From: a virus
IMG/VR virus record: IMGVR_UViG_3300036772_000566
Span: 1 to 32,263 of that record
Reading direction: 5' to 3' (one strand)
DNA: 32,263 nucleotides
Shown here: piece by piece, positions 5,153-32,263 of the stretch
Layout of the letters: every line of letters begins with the position of its first letter
Numbering within the stretch: the stretch's first letter is position 1
The notes under the pieces: model-generated
What the model saw: the letters and a program-made list of their open reading frames with translations, nothing else
Told to the model about the DNA's origin: nothing
Database searches by the model: none
Position numbers and translations under genes: made by a program

Positions 5153-5181
5153 GGCGTGCATGCCGTGGGTTTCTGCACGCC
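5153..5181 (+). promoter_or_regulatory. leader hairpin before the MazG-like gene
   Basis: Perfect 8-bp arms GGCGTGCA (5153-5160) and TGCACGCC (5174-5181) enclose a 13-base loop. Only CAAATTTAGG follows, so a classic terminator is unlikely. The hairpin sits 25 bases upstream of a GTG start and may stabilise a processed mRNA end or act as a partial attenuator separating the gam and MazG-like portions of the early transcript. Confidence 0.45.
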
Positions 5182-5206
5182 AAATTTAGGAATTGAGGTA
5201 TTTAAA

Positions 5207-5764
5207 GTGAAAACTGATAAGTATTGGAATGAACACACATCCTCTTCTTTTGGGCTGAAGTCGATAGATAAAAATAAGGTGTTTGAGTCTGCATTTGTTC
5301 GCTGGGGCTATGACCGCCAGATTATTAAACTCGCCGAAGAATCCAGCGAGCTTTCGGTTGCCGCGTGTAAGTTTGTCGGCCATAGCGGGAATGGTAAAGC
5401 GCTGGCGGAAGAATGCGCCGATGTGGAAATCATGATCGAACAGGTTCGTCATAACGGGTTGCACTCGCAAATTGACGCGGAGAAAGAGCGCAAGTTGGCG
5501 CGATTGGCTCTCATGCTTGAGGGTTGCGAAGACATAGACGCAGCGCCTGACATGCAGCGATTGCGCGGCAAACTCGACCAGATAGAGCATTTTTTTATGG
5601 AGGACTGCGAAGCGTTAACAGATGCGTTTCTGGCTTTTGACTTCCATTTAGCCAGCAATATCTCCCGTCGTGCAGCGGGCCGTTTAATGCACATGGCCCA
5701 ATTATCCGCACGTATTGCCCGCGTTCGCTCTATTCCATCCCCAGCACGTTCGGAGGCTAAATAA
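5207..5764 (+). CDS. MazG-like nucleotide pyrophosphohydrolase domain protein
   Basis: The 185-residue product carries the metal-binding signature of the MazG/dUTPase all-alpha superfamily: E44-E45-x2-E48 (AEESSE), a loop (KFVGHSGNGK), then E69-x2-D72 (EECADVEIMIEQ). Such proteins hydrolyse NTPs or (p)ppGpp-like substrates to monophosphate plus pyrophosphate. Phage versions are thought to clean nucleotide pools or blunt stringent signalling; the substrate here is unknown. Residues after about 110 form an additional helical region not typical of minimal MazG domains. The start is GTG 5207, with GAGGT at 5195-5199; an earlier in-frame ATG at 5156 lies in a hairpin and lacks a ribosome site. The stop overlaps the next start (TAATG). 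Confidence 0.8.
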   Translation: MKTDKYWNEHTSSSFGLKSIDKNKVFESAFVRWGYDRQIIKLAEESSELSVAACKFVGHSGNGKALAEECADVEIMIEQVRHNGLHSQIDAEKERKLARLALMLEGCEDIDAAPDMQRLRGKLDQIEHFFMEDCEALTDAFLAFDFHLASNISRRAAGRLMHMAQLSARIARVRSIPSPARSEAK

Positions 5765-8202: not shown

Positions 8203-8490
8203 ATGAAAAGTAAAACTATTCTTGCCGCTGTCGCGTTGTGTTCAGTTGCGTTGTTATCGGGTTGTTCGCACTCATTGCCCGCTAACGATGTGCGTTTAAA
8301 GTTAGATGAATGCACCAATGCGCAGCTCGATAACATCGTGTATATGCGTGCCGATAAAAGCGTGCTGAATGTTGTCTGTACCCCAAAGCCTGACGAGATT
8401 GTTAACCCGGTGACGGTTAATCATCCGCTCTTCTTTTGGTTATCACCATCACATCAAAAGCCTACCGTACCGCCTTTAAAGGTGAGCTAA
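8203..8490 (+). CDS. small outer-membrane-type lipoprotein
   Basis: A 95-residue protein with a classic lipoprotein signal: basic start MKSK, hydrophobic stretch TILAAVALCSVALL, and lipobox LLSGC, with the acylated Cys at about residue 21 and Ser-His following (so likely outer membrane). The mature part is about 75 residues with two further Cys and a Pro-containing C-terminus (PTVPPLKVS). ATG 8203 is preferred to ATG 8188, since the latter has no ribosome site. As the first gene after the putative late promoter, it sits where Mu carries lysis functions. It might be an Rz1-like spanin component or lysogenic-conversion protein, but no Rz partner is visible. Function is unknown. Confidence 0.75.
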   Translation: MKSKTILAAVALCSVALLSGCSHSLPANDVRLKLDECTNAQLDNIVYMRADKSVLNVVCTPKPDEIVNPVTVNHPLFFWLSPSHQKPTVPPLKVS

Positions 8491-9316: not shown

Positions 9317-9475
9317 ATGCCGCTGGTTATCATTATTGCCGTATTCTTATTAGGTATTATATTCGGTCATCCTGTATTAATTCCGTTAGCATTTGCAGGG
9401 GCCGTTATTCTTGTTTTTATCATCATTGTGGGCGTTATTGCGTGGTGTTTAGGTCCGCGTAAAACGTTTAGGTAA
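9317..9475 (+). CDS. tiny two-helix membrane protein (possible holin-like)
   Basis: A 52-residue frame: MPLVIIIAVFLLGIIFGH, PVLIPLAFAGAVILVF, then IIIVGVIAWCLGPRKTFR. It is nearly all hydrophobic, with two membrane spans (about residues 3-15 and 22-45, joined by a short turn GHPV) and a basic tail (PRKTFR). ATG 9317 is one base after the preceding stop and has GGGGAG at 9306-9311. The stop lies five bases before terminase small subunit. No gene otherwise fills this gap. It could be a holin-type or small accessory membrane protein; nothing beyond topology supports either, and no endolysin is adjacent. Confidence 0.68.
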   Translation: MPLVIIIAVFLLGIIFGHPVLIPLAFAGAVILVFIIIVGVIAWCLGPRKTFR

Positions 9476-10056: not shown

Positions 10057-11651
10057 TGACTGAACCCCGCAGAACGCCCAGCGCTGAAATGGTCCTTGAG
10101 GCAATGAATAACGCCGCGTTTGATAAAAGCGCGGTGTTATTGGGCTATCAAAAGCGCTGGATTGCTGATGAGTCACCGCTAAAGATTGCTGAAAAAAGTC
10201 GCCGAACAGGTATTACGTGGGCCGAAGCGGCTGACGCTGCACTTACGGCTGCGAAGTCCCGAACGGCTGGCGGCTCTGACCATTTCTATATTGGCTCTAA
10301 CAAAGAGATGGCCCGTGAGTTTATTGATGCCGTCGCCATGTGGGCCAGTGCCTATGGCATGGTGGCAAGCGAAATCGGCGAAGAAGTCTTTAACGATGAA
10401 GATAAAGACATCCTCACTTTTGTGGTTAATTTTGGCAGCGGCTTTAAAGTTCAGGCGCTCTCGTCTAATCCAAAGAACCTGCGCGGTATGCAGGGTAATG
10501 TGACCATTGACGAAGCGGCATTCCATGACCGGCTGGCCGAAGTGCTGAAAGCCGCGCTGGCGCTGACAATGTGGGGCTCAAAGGTCCGTTTAATCAGTAC
10601 GCACAATGGCACTGATAACCTGTTTAATCAGCTTATCAATGACAGCCGAGCGGGCCGCAAGCGTTATGCCATTCATACCATTACTCTTGATGATGCCTGC
10701 GCAGATGGACTTTATCAGCGTATCTGTCAGGTGACGCGGCAGGCATGGACGCAAGCGAAGGAGGACGAATGGAAAGCCAATCTGCTTAAAGATACAGCTA
10801 CCGAAGAAGACGCCCTCGAAGAATATTACTGCGTGCCAAAGCAAGGCGGCGGCGCGTATATCCCTCGCCCGATGCTTGATCGAGCCGCCCGCCCTGAGCA
10901 TGTGGTGGTGTCGTTTGCATCGCCGAAAGGTTGGATGGATTGGACCGAAGAACAGCGACAAGCCGAGGTGTTGGCGTGGTGTGAGGAACATCTCGAACCA
11001 CTGTTAGATGAACTCGACAAAACCCGCCCCCACGCGTTCGGCGAGGACTTTGCGCGTAAAGGCGACCTGTCTGTTTTTGCCGTGGGCGCTATTGAGTCAG
11101 ATACCAAGCGCAAAATGCGGATCACTATTGAACTGCATGATGTGACGTACAACCAGCAGCGCGAGATCATGTTCTTCATTCTTGAGCGTCTACCGCGCTT
11201 TTGTGGCGCTGCATTCGACGCCACTGGCAACGGCGGCTATTTAGCCGAAGCCGCGCTATTACGCTATGGCTCTGAAATGGTGGAAGCCGTTCACCTGAAT
11301 GATCCGTGGTATCGCGAATGGATGCCGAAATATAAGGCGCTTTACGAATCGGACATGATTGAAATCCCGCGCAGCGAAGATGTGATCGCCGACCAGCGCC
11401 ACATTCAAGTGATGCGCGGTGTGCCAAAAATCGACAAATCCCGCACCGAGGGTCAGAACGGCGCGAAACGTCACGGTGATAGCGCCGTCGCTTATTGTAT
11501 GTGCGTCCGGGCTTCATATATGGACGGCTATGAAATCGACTTTACAGAGATACCCTCCTCACGTCATCACGAACAGAACGCCGAGCAACGCGGGCCGAAC
11601 TATGACGATATAGACGACGCCTATAACGAGTTTGATCGGGGGTGTTGGTGA
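10053..11651 (+). CDS. terminase large subunit (Mu gp28)
   Basis: A 532-residue packaging motor of the Mu gp28 type (Mu: 551 aa). The N-terminal ATPase part shows the family's Walker A-like EKSRRTGITW (residues about 47-56) and Walker B TIDEAAFHD (about 151-159). The RNase H-like nuclease has acidic residues in FGEDFARKGDLSVF (about 329-342) and FDATGNGG. The start is ATG 10053 or the adjacent 10056. It cuts at pac and packages headfuls including flanking host DNA. No frame damage is seen. Confidence 0.95.
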   Translation: MMTEPRRTPSAEMVLEAMNNAAFDKSAVLLGYQKRWIADESPLKIAEKSRRTGITWAEAADAALTAAKSRTAGGSDHFYIGSNKEMAREFIDAVAMWASAYGMVASEIGEEVFNDEDKDILTFVVNFGSGFKVQALSSNPKNLRGMQGNVTIDEAAFHDRLAEVLKAALALTMWGSKVRLISTHNGTDNLFNQLINDSRAGRKRYAIHTITLDDACADGLYQRICQVTRQAWTQAKEDEWKANLLKDTATEEDALEEYYCVPKQGGGAYIPRPMLDRAARPEHVVVSFASPKGWMDWTEEQRQAEVLAWCEEHLEPLLDELDKTRPHAFGEDFARKGDLSVFAVGAIESDTKRKMRITIELHDVTYNQQREIMFFILERLPRFCGAAFDATGNGGYLAEAALLRYGSEMVEAVHLNDPWYREWMPKYKALYESDMIEIPRSEDVIADQRHIQVMRGVPKIDKSRTEGQNGAKRHGDSAVAYCMCVRASYMDGYEIDFTEIPSSRHHEQNAEQRGPNYDDIDDAYNEFDRGCW

Positions 11652-11857
11652 TGTTTTGGCTTATCTTTGCGCTCCAGTATCTTCTGATTTTTGCGGATAT
11701 CTTCTCCGGTCAACATGGTGGCGGCATTTTTATTGCCATGCTTTGGTGCTGCTACGGACTTGTTATTTGGATGGAAGCAGGCAGACGCGCAGACATTTTG
11801 GCGAATATTTGGTACGCACAGCTTAAAGCGGAAATCAGGAGTTCTCATGGCAAATAA
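11651..11857 (+). CDS. small two-span membrane protein between terminase and portal
   Basis: A 68-residue frame with two hydrophobic segments: FWLIFALQYLLIFADIF (residues 2-18) and GGGIFIAMLWCCYGLVIWM (about 26-44). The charged C-terminus carries RRADILANIW and AEIRSSHGK. Its ATG shares a base with the terminase stop (TGATG at 11649-11653) and GGGGG lies at 11638-11642; it overlaps portal by 11 bases. Mu has no comparable gene that I can recall at this place. Function unknown; it may serve membrane or lysis roles. Coding evidence is the coupling, ribosome site and clear topology. Confidence 0.6.
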   Translation: MFWLIFALQYLLIFADIFSGQHGGGIFIAMLWCCYGLVIWMEAGRRADILANIWYAQLKAEIRSSHGK

Positions 11858-15299: not shown

Positions 15300-15809
15300 G
15301 TGTTTAATCAACGCATTTCCCCCCTTATTTCTGGCGTAATGCTGACGTGCTCATTTTGCTTGAGTGCATCGGCGGCAACTAAAGCAGATGAGGGCATCGA
15401 GTGGCCTCCATACAGTGATGCATTGACCAGTGGTCCTCGTGCCGGTTTTTTCCCTCACACTGATAAATACGTCACCTTGCTAGGTGCTCCACAATTTTTA
15501 AAAAAAGGCATGTTTTATTTTTCTATTCCACAAATTTGGTATGAAAAGCAAGATGGTTCAACCTTGATGGAGGAAGGGAAATTGTTAAAACGAGCGAAAG
15601 ATAAATTTGTTGGTGGTCGAGTTTGTGACGCTGTCGCTCTTGGTGTTGACTTACGCGAAGGAAATTATTCATGGCAGTGCGTTGATGAAATGATAGGGAC
15701 AGATAAATTTTACTTTCGCAAAGATGATCCTGTCCTTACTGGCGCAAAAATTAAGCCTGAAAAAAGCACACCAATCAATCCAAAATTAGCGGCTATCTTA
15801 GAACCATAG
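15300..15809 (+). CDS. secreted protein of unknown function, probable moron
   Basis: A 169-residue protein with GTG start at 15300. It has a signal peptide: basic NQR, hydrophobic core LISGVMLTCSFCLSASAA, and predicted cleavage after ASAA or TKA (about residue 26-30). The mature part is about 140 residues (EGIEWPPYSDALTSGPRAGF onward) with two Cys (RVCDAVALG and YSWQCVDE) that could form a periplasmic disulfide. I do not recognise the family. Base and codon use are visibly more AT-rich than neighbours (many AAA, TTT and TTA codons), with its own leader and terminator, between the end of one late operon and the start of the next. That is the profile of a moron for lysogenic conversion; function is inferred only. 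Confidence 0.75.
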   Translation: MFNQRISPLISGVMLTCSFCLSASAATKADEGIEWPPYSDALTSGPRAGFFPHTDKYVTLLGAPQFLKKGMFYFSIPQIWYEKQDGSTLMEEGKLLKRAKDKFVGGRVCDAVALGVDLREGNYSWQCVDEMIGTDKFYFRKDDPVLTGAKIKPEKSTPINPKLAAILEP

Positions 15810-29400: not shown

Positions 29401-30417
29401 ATGTATTACGTTGATAACGCCAGCGGCATTGCGCAAATGCCAGCATTAAAGCCCGTCTATAGCACAAGCCCAACGTGGTTTACCGAGGGCGGCGGCTCAA
29501 CTCCGCCGACGTATCCGGGGCCGGATACGTTTAACATGATTATTTCTGAGATGATTAACGTGCTCGAAGCGGCAGGCATGACGCCCAAAAAAGATAGCCT
29601 CACACAACTTTCAGAGGCTATCTCTAAGATAGTTTCAGATGGCATAGCGGGACTAGGCACTGCTGCAACGCACAACGTACAAACATCACCAACGGATACA
29701 ACAGCTGGCGCAGTGTTACTGCCGGGGGCATATGGGTGGGGGGGCGTTTCTATAGCGACCGCAACAACGTCTAATTCTGATTTACATCATTTGCCGGGCA
29801 TGTCGTTCAACGCGGTTCGTGAATACGTGTCATCTGATAGTTCGGTAGATTTAATTGGTATTAGTGGCCTCTCATCTAACGGAAATTTAGCCGAATGGCT
29901 TGCGCCGGAGAATGGCGCTGATGGAACTAAACTAGCCGTCAGGAACATGACCACATTATTCACTATTTATAGTGACATGAATGAACCACCTTATCCAGTG
30001 ACGTCAGTAAATGGGGAGACAGGCGCTGTTGTACTAACTGCGAGTGATGTTAGTGCACTACCTGACACTTACACACCACCTGCACCGGATTTAAGTGCAT
30101 ACATCACAACAAGCGCGGCTGATGCGAAATACCAGCTTAAAAACACAGCGTCAAAAGCAGTAAATGGCTGGGAGAAAGATTCTGCAACTGGGATTATTCG
30201 TCAATGGGGTACATTCTCTGGAGCTTACGCGAACAGTAGCATCACATTCCCTTTAGCATTCCCATCTACATGCTCTAACGTGATTCTAACTCAAGGCCCT
30301 CTAGGAGATGTTTATGATGCAAATATGGGGATTGCATCGATGTCGGCCACAAAATTTGTAACTGACAATTGGATGAGCGGTAGCGGGACTTTGTATTGGC
30401 AGGCCGTGGGGTATTAA
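29401..30417 (+). CDS. S: tail fibre protein (Mu gpS-like)
   Basis: A 338-residue receptor-binding fibre, shorter than Mu S (504 aa). The conserved N-terminus (MYYVDNASGIAQMPALKPVY, then PTWFTEGGG and PGPDTFNMIISEMINVLEAA) attaches to the baseplate. The centre holds a shaft-like GETGAVVLTASDVSALP element seen in many enteric fibres. The C-terminal tip (SKAVNGWEKDSATGIIRQWG to YWQAVGY) is the type that takes host-range variation and depends on a chaperone. The shaft region is AT-richer and less Mu-like than the ends, which fits modular exchange. The stop overlaps the next ATG. Confidence 0.9.
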   Translation: MYYVDNASGIAQMPALKPVYSTSPTWFTEGGGSTPPTYPGPDTFNMIISEMINVLEAAGMTPKKDSLTQLSEAISKIVSDGIAGLGTAATHNVQTSPTDTTAGAVLLPGAYGWGGVSIATATTSNSDLHHLPGMSFNAVREYVSSDSSVDLIGISGLSSNGNLAEWLAPENGADGTKLAVRNMTTLFTIYSDMNEPPYPVTSVNGETGAVVLTASDVSALPDTYTPPAPDLSAYITTSAADAKYQLKNTASKAVNGWEKDSATGIIRQWGTFSGAYANSSITFPLAFPSTCSNVILTQGPLGDVYDANMGIASMSATKFVTDNWMSGSGTLYWQAVGY

Positions 30418-30857
30418 TGATGAGCACATATATTTATAGCGCAATAAACAACGCCTTTTACCCGCTAGCGTTACAGAGTGATTATGAGGGGGTGGGTACG
30501 TGGCCGGATGACGGGGTTGATGTTGACGATTCTGTCTATGCTGAGTTTGCGGCTAATCAGCCACCTGATGGAAAGATGAGGGCTGCTGATTCTAGCGGCA
30601 TGCCCGCGTGGATTGATATTCCTCCACTTAGTCAGAGTGAAGTTATCGCTAAAAACACTCGAGCATTTAACGCGTTATTGCGTTCAACCACTGACGCGGC
30701 TTTTCCGCTTCAGTCTGCTGTTGCACTCGGTATTGCTACTGATGTACAGACTCAAGCGCTGGTCGCATTACAGCAGTACGCGGTTAATCTTGCAAGTACG
30801 AACCTTACAGTTGATCCGGTCGTTTGGCCTGAAGCACCGATAGAAGTGACGTTGTAA
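30417..30857 (+). CDS. U: tail fibre assembly protein (Mu gpU-like)
   Basis: A 146-residue chaperone for fibre folding, of the Mu U/lambda Tfa type. Seen: MMSTYIYSAINNAFYPLALQ, then GWP-like WPDDGVDVDDSVYAEFA, and the Pro/Asp segment PDGKMRAADSSGMPAWID, followed by a helix resembling other Tfa proteins. ATG 30417 shares its first base with the fibre stop (TAATG), as S-U pairs do. Unlike in Mu, no reverse-oriented second S'-U' pair or invertase gene is found next to it. Confidence 0.85.
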   Translation: MMSTYIYSAINNAFYPLALQSDYEGVGTWPDDGVDVDDSVYAEFAANQPPDGKMRAADSSGMPAWIDIPPLSQSEVIAKNTRAFNALLRSTTDAAFPLQSAVALGIATDVQTQALVALQQYAVNLASTNLTVDPVVWPEAPIEVTL

Positions 30858-30880: not shown

Positions 30881-31048
30881 ATGCTGCCTTTTAATCGTTG
30901 TTTAAACTGCAATAAATTGCTCTTTAAAGGGCGATTTATTGAGGTTGAAATAAAGTGCCGTCACTGCAAAACGGTCAATCATTTGAGTGCCGCCGAGCGC
31001 CTAACATCAAATGAGGAATGCAATCATGAAGAAAAAAAACGCACCTGA
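30881..31048 (+). CDS. com: Com, zinc-finger translational activator of mom
   Basis: A 55-residue protein (Mu Com: 62 aa) starting at ATG 30881: MLPFNRCLNCNKLLFKGRF, then IEVEIKCRHCKTVNHLSAAE. The core RCxNCNKLLFK and KCxxCK give a C4 zinc site (Cys 7, 10, 26, 29), as in Mu. Com binds mom mRNA and refolds it so that the mom start is exposed. GGAG at 30868-30871 is the ribosome site. Its end overlaps the lysozyme ATG by 23 bases, whereas in Mu com overlaps mom itself. Only one GATC (30813-30816) lies within 150 bp upstream, so Dam-controlled transcription of the Mu type is not evident. Confidence 0.9.
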   Translation: MLPFNRCLNCNKLLFKGRFIEVEIKCRHCKTVNHLSAAERLTSNEECNHEEKKRT

Positions 31049-31514
31049 GAAAAGTCAAATTATCCCATTATTAGAATTTGAGGAAGGGACTGAATTGTCG
31101 CCCTATCTTGATTCTTTGGGGTATCCGTCAACAGGAACGGGCTTTAAATTGGGGCCAAAGGGTGCTCCCTTAAGTCACTATACATTCATAATTACGCAGG
31201 ATGTAAATGATGTATGGCTGCAATCGCTTGTTGATGTCACTTTGTCTCAGATGTCTAAAGACTCGGTGGTCTCCTCAGCACTTGAGCACTGCAATCAACC
31301 ACGCAAAGATATTTTGACCTCAATGTCTTATCAAATGGGTGAAAGCGGGCTTGATGGGTTTCATGATGCATTGGCGGCAATGACTGCCGAGAATTGGGAT
31401 GAAGCCGCTACGCAAATGTTAGACAGTACATGGGCCACGCAAACGCCAGAACGCGCCCAGCGTCATGCTGACGTTATGCGCTCAGGTGAATGGAAACCGA
31501 CCTATAATTTCTAA
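31026..31514 (+). CDS. T4-type lysozyme (endolysin, glycoside hydrolase 24 fold)
   Basis: A 162-residue muramidase aligned with T4 lysozyme (164 aa). The catalytic E20 and D29 are eight residues apart (EGTELSPYLD), and the beta-sheet turn GYPSTGTGFKLG follows. The position of the third residue, T26 in T4, is Ser35 here. The C-terminal lobe SYQMGESGLDGFHDALAAMT, then WDEAATQMLDS and TPERAQRHADVMRSG, matches T4. There is no signal peptide, so a holin would be needed; no neighbour is an obvious one. ATG 31026 has GAGGA upstream and overlaps com. Mu's endolysin sits in its lysis operon, so this location is unusual. Confidence 0.9.
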   Translation: MKKKNAPEKSQIIPLLEFEEGTELSPYLDSLGYPSTGTGFKLGPKGAPLSHYTFIITQDVNDVWLQSLVDVTLSQMSKDSVVSSALEHCNQPRKDILTSMSYQMGESGLDGFHDALAAMTAENWDEAATQMLDSTWATQTPERAQRHADVMRSGEWKPTYNF

Positions 31515-31528
31515 TAGTTAATATATTG

Positions 31529-31561
31529 AGCGCCCCCGAGCGCCTGTAAATTGGGGGCGCT
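31529..31561 (+). promoter_or_regulatory. hairpin sequestering the mom ribosome binding site
   Basis: Perfect 9-bp arms AGCGCCCCC (31529-31537) and GGGGGCGCT (31553-31561) end one base before the mom ATG (31562). The right arm contains the only ribosome site (GGGGG at 31553-31557). It is not followed by a T-tract, so termination is unlikely. This is the equivalent of the Mu mom translation-inhibitor stem-loop that Com opens. Action of Com here is inferred from Mu. Confidence 0.78.
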
Positions 31562-32263
31562 ATGCCTAAAGTATCTCGAGTACTCAGTCCACGCGGCGCG
31601 ATTAAAGACGGTGAAACGGTGATCGGTTATGGTTGCACCGAGTTAAACGTTAGCCTTATTTCATGCTGGCTCGCTCGTACTATCATCAAATCAAAACACT
31701 ATTCTGGAAGCTTTGTTAATAACAGCTACCTTCATTTAGGTGTTTTTGCTGGCCGCGAGTTGGTCGGCGTGCTCCAGTTCGGTTATGCACTTAACCCGAA
31801 TAGCGGTGCTCGTGTAGTTACGGGTACTGGCAATCGCGGGTATATGGAGCTTAATCGGATGTGGATCCATGACAGCCAGCCTCGCAACACCGAAAGCCGT
31901 GTTTTAAGCTATTCACTAAAGTTAATCACTTTACTTTATCCACGTGTTAAGTGGGTTCAATCGTTTGCAGATGAGCGCTGCGGGCGTGCTGGCGTCGTAT
32001 ATCAGGCTGCTAATTTTGAATATGTTGGTGGTCATGTGACGACGTTTTACGAGCTAGATGGAGAGTATTATCACAAGATTTGCATGGAAGCCGAGAAGCG
32101 CGGAGGCAAACGCGGAGAGTACTTAAGGGCTAACCGTGAGCGAGCTATAACACATCGGTTCAAGCAGTATCGGTATATAAGATTCTTAGATAAGCGAGCG
32201 AGAGCTTGTTTGAATGGTAAGCTGTTTAAGTTTCAAGCTTACCCTAAGCCCGAGGTTAGCTAA
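31562..32263 (+). CDS. mom: Mom DNA modification protein
   Basis: A 233-residue homologue of Mu Mom (about 230-240 aa), which converts many adenines to a carbamoylmethyl form and protects phage DNA from restriction enzymes; it is a GNAT-related enzyme. Conserved segments: [75 protein letters not shown] and [17 protein letters not shown]. The ATG is immediately after an inhibitory hairpin, so translation should be low without Com. The gene ends at the window's last base; the right phage end would lie just beyond. Confidence 0.95.

What the first reader, a model, noticed from the sequence alone, without database searches (positions are those of the whole stretch)
31026..31514. Lysozyme gene inserted between com and mom
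In Mu com and mom overlap, and Com acts on the adjacent mom leader. Here a T4-type lysozyme gene overlaps com by 23 bases and separates it from mom by about 500 bases. No lysozyme is seen in the usual lysis position after mor. Lysis and DNA modification would then share one late transcript, and Com may also affect lysozyme translation.
Basis: partly seen in the sequence, partly recalled or inferred. Interest (0 to 1): 0.65.

Follow-up and report, generated by a model that had tools for sequence, protein, structure and literature searches.

The report
Com operon with lysozyme before mom
In this Mu-like phage a T4-type lysozyme gene sits between the small RNA-binding regulator Com and the DNA-modifying gene mom, and both the lysozyme gene and mom are preceded by their own copy of the RNA hairpin that Com is known to bind, so one regulator may switch on both host lysis and DNA protection.

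Summary
None of about 70 other mom loci has a lysozyme there, and no other endolysin was recognised in the record.

The new result is that the published SELEX motif for Com (GAGNNCC-N2-3-GAGNNCC) occurs exactly twice in the 32-kb window. One copy ends 24 nt before the lysozyme ATG, the other 17 nt before the mom ATG. A covariance model built from other Com loci, without the window, ranks these two sites first and second by a wide margin. The second copy lies in the noncoding lys-mom gap and is a 29-nt relic of the com 3' end. The insertion is therefore flanked by two copies of the Com target, and mom kept its control element 513 bases away from com. mom's ribosome-binding site is buried in an 11-bp stem that overlaps its Com hairpin; for lys this masking is only weak.

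Most likely Com activates translation of both genes from one late transcript. Binding is strongly predicted; activation of lys is inferred. It is a new variant of the Com/mom system. Only one record shows com-lys-mom.

The parts
30881..31048 (+). com: Com zinc-finger translational activator, 55 aa; Cys 7, 10, 26 and 29 kept
   Evidence: PF10122, 33.9 bits; PHROG translational regulator; Cys columns invariant in alignment
30984..31002 (+). Com-binding hairpin 1, in the com 3' end, in front of lys (UGA-GUGC-CGCCGA-GCGC-CU)
   Evidence: exact SELEX motif; held-out covariance model 23.0 bits, E 3.1e-4, second-best hit in the window
30979..31014 (+). 8-bp inverted repeat UCAUUUGA/UCAAAUGA around hairpin 1; its 3' arm overlaps the first bases of the lys ribosome-binding site
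   Evidence: folds; not better than shuffled sequence (z +0.6), so weak
31013..31016 (+). lys ribosome-binding site GAGG
   Evidence: sequence
31026..31514 (+). lys: T4-type lysozyme, 162 aa, no signal or membrane segment; E20 and D29 match T4 E11 and D20, S35 replaces T26
31517..31545 (+). noncoding relic of a com 3' end; reads VNILSAPERL-stop in the com frame; 23 of 29 bases identical to 30974-31002
   Evidence: 0 of 2000 shuffles score as high
31527..31545 (+). Com-binding hairpin 2, in front of mom (UGA-GCGC-CCCCGA-GCGC-CU)
   Evidence: exact SELEX motif; held-out covariance model 23.8 bits, E 1.9e-4, best hit in the window
31529..31561 (+). 11-bp stem (31529-31539 with 31551-31561) that buries the mom ribosome-binding site GGGGG (31553-31557) and shares bases with Com hairpin 2; a translation-inhibition structure by analogy with Mu
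   Evidence: -24 kcal/mol, z -2.6; P(unpaired) of the ribosome-binding site 0.00
31562..32263 (+). mom: DNA adenine modification gene
   Evidence: PF25680, E 1.7e-71; 71% identical to Mu Mom
9317..9475 (+). candidate holin (52 aa, two membrane segments), unproven
   Evidence: hydropathy only; no family match

Best explanation
The com-lys-mom segment is a Com-controlled operon with two targets. An endolysin gene of the T4 lysozyme type was inserted at the com/mom junction in such a way that a com 3' end, with its Com-binding RNA hairpin, now lies in front of each gene. Late in infection one transcript carries all three genes. Com, made first, binds hairpin 1 and hairpin 2. At mom, Com binding (or the folding of its hairpin during transcription) prevents the 11-bp stem that hides the ribosome-binding site, so mom is translated, as in Mu. 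At lys, Com bound 24 nt before the start codon opens the weaker structure there and raises lysozyme translation, possibly together with coupling to com translation through the 23-base overlap. The lysozyme is the phage's endolysin and needs a holin encoded elsewhere. Shown by computation: gene order, family membership, two Com sites, relic of com, masked mom start. Inferred: Com binding in vivo, activation of lys, role of lys in lysis.
For: The SELEX motif of Com is NGAGNNCC(N)2-3GAGNNCCNN, and Com prefers it in a hairpin (PMC6483171). The window has exactly two exact matches on both strands, one before lys and one before mom; shuffles average 0.015 and none of 200 has two. A covariance model trained on 27 other Com sites puts these two first (23.8 and 23.0 bits) with the third at 12.5 bits. 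The hairpin is real in the family: 57 of 66 distinct com genes carry it in their 3' part with covarying pairs; three of four pairs show two-sided changes, and 0 of 500 shuffles reach the covariation score. It is not explained by coding: 29 of 39 com clusters have it against 1.1 expected under synonymous recoding. It precedes whatever gene follows com: mom, several DNA methyltransferase types, and bacteriocin-like genes. The noncoding lys-mom gap kept the motif although the rest of com is gone there. Relatives of lys elsewhere have no Com site and some sit beside holins. Distances from site to start codon are 17 nt (mom) and 24 nt (lys), against 15 in Mu and L002. A second example of com-gene-site-gene is L279, about 18 nt from site to ATG.
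Against: The lys site lies inside com, where nearly all com genes carry it, so it could be inherited without acting on lys. The predicted structure over the lys start is no stronger than shuffled sequence, and forcing the Com hairpin changes the access of its ribosome-binding site only partly. com translation runs through hairpin 1, which could disturb Com binding there (true of Mu as well). Only one record has the arrangement. No holin or spanin is recognised next to lys. The Com protein here differs from Mu Com (about 41% identical) and its binding was not measured.
Confidence: 0.6

Rival explanations
1. Only mom is under Com. The lysozyme is a passenger in the late operon, translated from its own GAGG site or coupled to com. 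Hairpin 1 is just the normal 3' end of com, and hairpin 2 was kept because mom needs it.
For: Hairpin 1 is where most com genes have it. The lys start is only weakly structured. lys has a normal ribosome-binding site.
Against: In other com operons the site in the com 3' end is the one just before the next gene. Once mom had its own copy, copy 1 was free to decay, yet all motif bases remain exact (all six differences between the copies fall outside the specified motif bases).
Confidence: 0.27
2. The lysozyme is not the phage's endolysin but an accessory muralytic enzyme; the true lysis genes are unrecognised or lie outside the record.
For: It lies next to tail fibre genes, with no holin beside it; S replaces the catalytic T26; the record lacks its left end.
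Against: Close relatives sit beside holins in ordinary lysis cassettes (L174, 64% identical and also with S at that place; L150; several phages). No other endolysin was found.
Confidence: 0.2
3. The arrangement is an assembly artefact that joined two contigs inside com-like sequence.
For: Single record; the insert is flanked by a 29-nt imperfect repeat.
Against: The repeats differ at six positions, the reading frames are intact and overlap sensibly, composition is even across the segment, and the second copy sits exactly where mom needs it.
Confidence: 0.03

Closest known systems
Mu com/mom operon (Mu, D108, SfMu; Com-activated translation of mom)
   Same: Com and Mom proteins, Com hairpin about 15-17 nt before the mom start, a stem that masks mom translation signals
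   Different: A lysozyme gene lies between com and mom; the Com site is duplicated; mom starts 513 bases after com; Mu has a cluster of three GATC sites (Dam control region) just before com, here a single GATC 67 bases upstream
com-linked bacteriocin and lytic-enzyme genes of Pseudomonas (PMC6240691; EU982300)
   Same: com in front of genes other than mom, including a lytic enzyme of a tailocin lysis cassette in some strains; a degenerate com with the site before a colicin M-like gene
   Different: There the target genes are bacteriocins or tailocin lysis genes; the review calls the role of Com unexplored and no RNA site is given in the passage read
T4-type lysozymes (T4 gene e; PF00959)
   Same: Full-length homology, catalytic E and D kept
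   Different: Catalytic T26 is S; gene is in a com/mom operon and not in a lysis cassette

Membership tests
T4-type phage lysozyme (PF00959) | HMM score above curated cut-off, full-length alignment to T4 lysozyme | tested here: met
   24.5 bits against 22.3; residues 12-158 align to T4 3-160, E 3.5e-18
T4-type phage lysozyme (PF00959) | catalytic E11, D20, T26 | tested here: inconclusive
   E and D kept, T replaced by S; the lysis-cassette relative L174 also has S
T4-type phage lysozyme (PF00959) | muramidase activity | not testable with these tools
   needs an assay
Com (PF10122) | four-cysteine zinc ribbon, HMM above cut-off | tested here: met
   33.9 bits against 22.9; all four Cys present
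Mom (PF25680) | HMM above cut-off over the whole domain | tested here: met
   240.5 bits against 27.1
Com-controlled mom leader as in Mu | Com hairpin with SELEX motif just before the target start | tested here: met
   both sites
Com-controlled mom leader as in Mu | translation-inhibition stem over the start or ribosome-binding site | tested here: met
   met for mom (z -2.6); for lys only weak
Com-controlled mom leader as in Mu | com overlaps the target gene | tested here: not met
   not met for mom (513 bases away); met for lys (23-base overlap)
Com-controlled mom leader as in Mu | Com binding and activation | not testable with these tools
   needs EMSA and reporter fusions
standard phage lysis cassette | holin and spanins adjacent to the endolysin | tested here: not met
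   neighbours are com and mom; only hydropathy candidates elsewhere

The most novel reading that the evidence does not exclude
Com is a multi-target translational switch: a mobile RNA hairpin, copied with the com 3' end, brings unrelated genes (lysis, DNA modification, bacteriocins) under one zinc-finger activator, and in this phage it sets the timing of lysis and DNA protection together.
Probability: 0.45. Interest if true: 0.75.

Novelty: new variant of a known kind. Interest (0 to 1): 0.6.

Why it matters
Com is a textbook one-target translational activator. Here its binding site is found in front of two genes, one of which probably kills the host, and a covarying hairpin is shown in most com genes whatever gene follows. 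This turns the open question noted in PMC6240691 (what is the general role of Com?) into a direct test: does a lytic or toxic gene downstream of com need Com through this hairpin? It also shows how a control element can be carried along when a gene is inserted into a regulated operon.

Tried and rejected
Searching viral contigs with lys as query gave no relative. A pattern scan for TTGAGYGCCNNNGAGCGCC in viral contigs gave 71 hits, mostly chance; only the already known L002/L110 phage had com and mom. No com-lys-mom in 392 genomes of the group around L065, nor in the E. coli, plasmid or phage collections. An intrinsic terminator between lys and mom was rejected: the GC stem before mom is not followed by a run of T. 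Rfam has no matching family (the microRNA hits are far below their thresholds). The folds of the lys start were expected to show strong masking and did not. No structure prediction was run because homology to T4 lysozyme is already full length.

Full report
Observation. The window is a Mu-like phage record of 32,263 bases, a virus contig that ends exactly at the mom stop. At its right end lie a tail fibre gene (29401-30417), a tail fibre assembly gene (30417-30857), com (30881-31048), a lysozyme gene (31026-31514) and mom (31562-32263). The lysozyme matches PF00959 just above its curated cut-off and aligns over its full length with T4 lysozyme: E20 and D29 stand at T4 E11 and D20, S35 at T26. 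com and lys overlap by 23 bases and com ends 513 bases before mom.

How unusual it is. In Mu com and mom overlap, and in the com-containing relatives fetched here com ends at or close to mom. Of 63 viral and 8 bacterial loci with a Mom relative, tblastn found the lysozyme only in the window. The E. coli, plasmid and phage collections gave mom matches but no lysozyme beside them. A search of 392 genomes around an enterobacterial relative found lys homologues up to 68% identical, none beside com or mom. The arrangement rests on one record.

Lysis genes. Mu has its endolysin and Rz between C and gp25. The matching stretch here has a lipoprotein (8203-8490), a DksA-like zinc finger and the gp25-like gene; PHROGs gave no other endolysin in the early and middle region. 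Relatives of this lysozyme lie beside holins in several phages and next to small membrane proteins in the prophage cassettes L174 and L150, so an endolysin role is likely. The protein has no membrane segment, so it needs a holin; 9317-9475 and 11642-11857 are only hydropathy candidates.

The Com sites. Nowacka et al. (PMC6483171) selected RNA with Com and obtained NGAGNNCC(N)2-3GAGNNCCNN, bound as a hairpin; the native Mu site is GAAUGCCUGCGAGCAUCCC. In the window this motif occurs twice in 64 kb of both strands: 30985 (GAGUGCCGCCGAGCGCC, ending 24 nt before the lys ATG) and 31528 (GAGCGCCCCCGAGCGCC, ending 17 nt before the mom ATG). Shuffled windows average 0.015 and none of 200 had two. The second site is noncoding: 31517-31545 matches 30974-31002 at 23 of 29 bases, more than any of 2000 shuffles, and in the com frame it reads VNILSAPERL-stop beside VNHLSAAERL in com. 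Joining the flanks at the repeats gives a com that ends just before mom with the usual spacing. The insert is therefore flanked by two com 3' ends.

The hairpin is a family-wide element. In 39 com clusters below 80% identity, 29 carry the (relaxed) motif in the 3' part of com, against 1.1 expected when codons are replaced by synonyms. In 66 clusters below 90%, 57 carry the loop core, and the stem pairs in 127 of 135 cells against at most 104 in shuffles. On a 27-site alignment without the window, three of the four pairs show two-sided changes and no shuffle of 500 reaches the covariation score. A covariance model from that alignment finds the two window sites first (23.8 and 23.0 bits), then nothing above 12.5. 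Mu's own site, which was in the training set, scores 24.5. Lys relatives elsewhere and Mu's lysis region have no site. No Rfam family matches. The genes after com include mom, adenine and cytosine methyltransferases and, in Pseudomonas, bacteriocin-like genes (gene types judged by eye from the translations). L279 shows com, a gene, a second site and, about 18 nt later, another start codon; EU982300 has a degenerate com with a site before a colicin M-like gene.

Structure at the two starts. The mom ribosome-binding site lies in an 11-bp stem (z -2.6; P(unpaired) 0.00), whose 5' arm shares bases with Com hairpin 2, so the two folds exclude each other. This is the logic of the Mu translation-inhibition structure with a different layout. 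At lys an 8-bp repeat around hairpin 1 overlaps the ribosome-binding site but is not stronger than chance. Control of lys is therefore the weaker half of the claim.

Transcription. No sigma-70-type promoter or terminator on the + strand clearly divides the segment; a TATAAT at 31503 without a -35 is noted. Mu has three GATC sites within 110 bases before com; here there is one, 67 bases upstream, and only 23 bases lie between the tail gene and com. com, lys and mom are probably read with the tail fibre genes (inference).

Conclusion. The best reading is a two-target Com operon: mom control is kept through a duplicated site, and lysozyme has taken the slot that Com normally serves. Com binding at both sites is well supported by motif, covariation and position; activation of lys is inferred. 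Precedent exists for com in front of lytic enzymes and bacteriocins (PMC6240691), so the finding is a new variant and not a new kind.

Noticed in passing
L002-L299 com loci: A covarying 17-base hairpin (GA-NNNC-C-N2-3-GA-GNNN-C) sits in the 3' part of most com genes just before the next gene, whatever that gene encodes; no Rfam family matches it.
   Followed up: yes
L195, L284, L288, L280, L271, L070, L251: Tandem Com sites about 22 nt apart before the next gene, several of them DNA methyltransferases.
   Followed up: partly
L181, L246, L296: com is followed by a gene for a roughly 375-aa protein with a P-loop (GPSGSGKS) of unknown role, in unrelated phages and genomes; possibly another modification system under Com.
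   Followed up: no
L279:1333-2372 and L269:3240-3475: Other operons with a second Com site away from com, one before a small secreted protein gene and one before a colicin M-like gene with a degenerate com.
   Followed up: partly
window 30813 and upstream of com: Only one GATC within 500 bases upstream of com; Mu's cluster of three GATC sites before com, tied to Dam control of mom transcription, is missing.
   Followed up: partly
window 9317-9475 and 11642-11857: Small ORFs with two predicted membrane segments, one just before the small terminase gene and one between the large terminase and portal genes; possible holins.
   Followed up: no
window 5156-5761 and 15300-15809: 5156-5761 is a MazG-like nucleoside triphosphate pyrophosphohydrolase gene in the early region; 15300-15809 encodes a likely secreted protein without family match.
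   Followed up: no
L074:5956-8090: Aeromonas phage pAEv1818, a lambda-like phage, has a mom gene (66% identical) directly before a small hypothetical gene, an annotated chitinase and a DUF2570 gene that look like its lysis genes; no com is annotated there.
   Followed up: no
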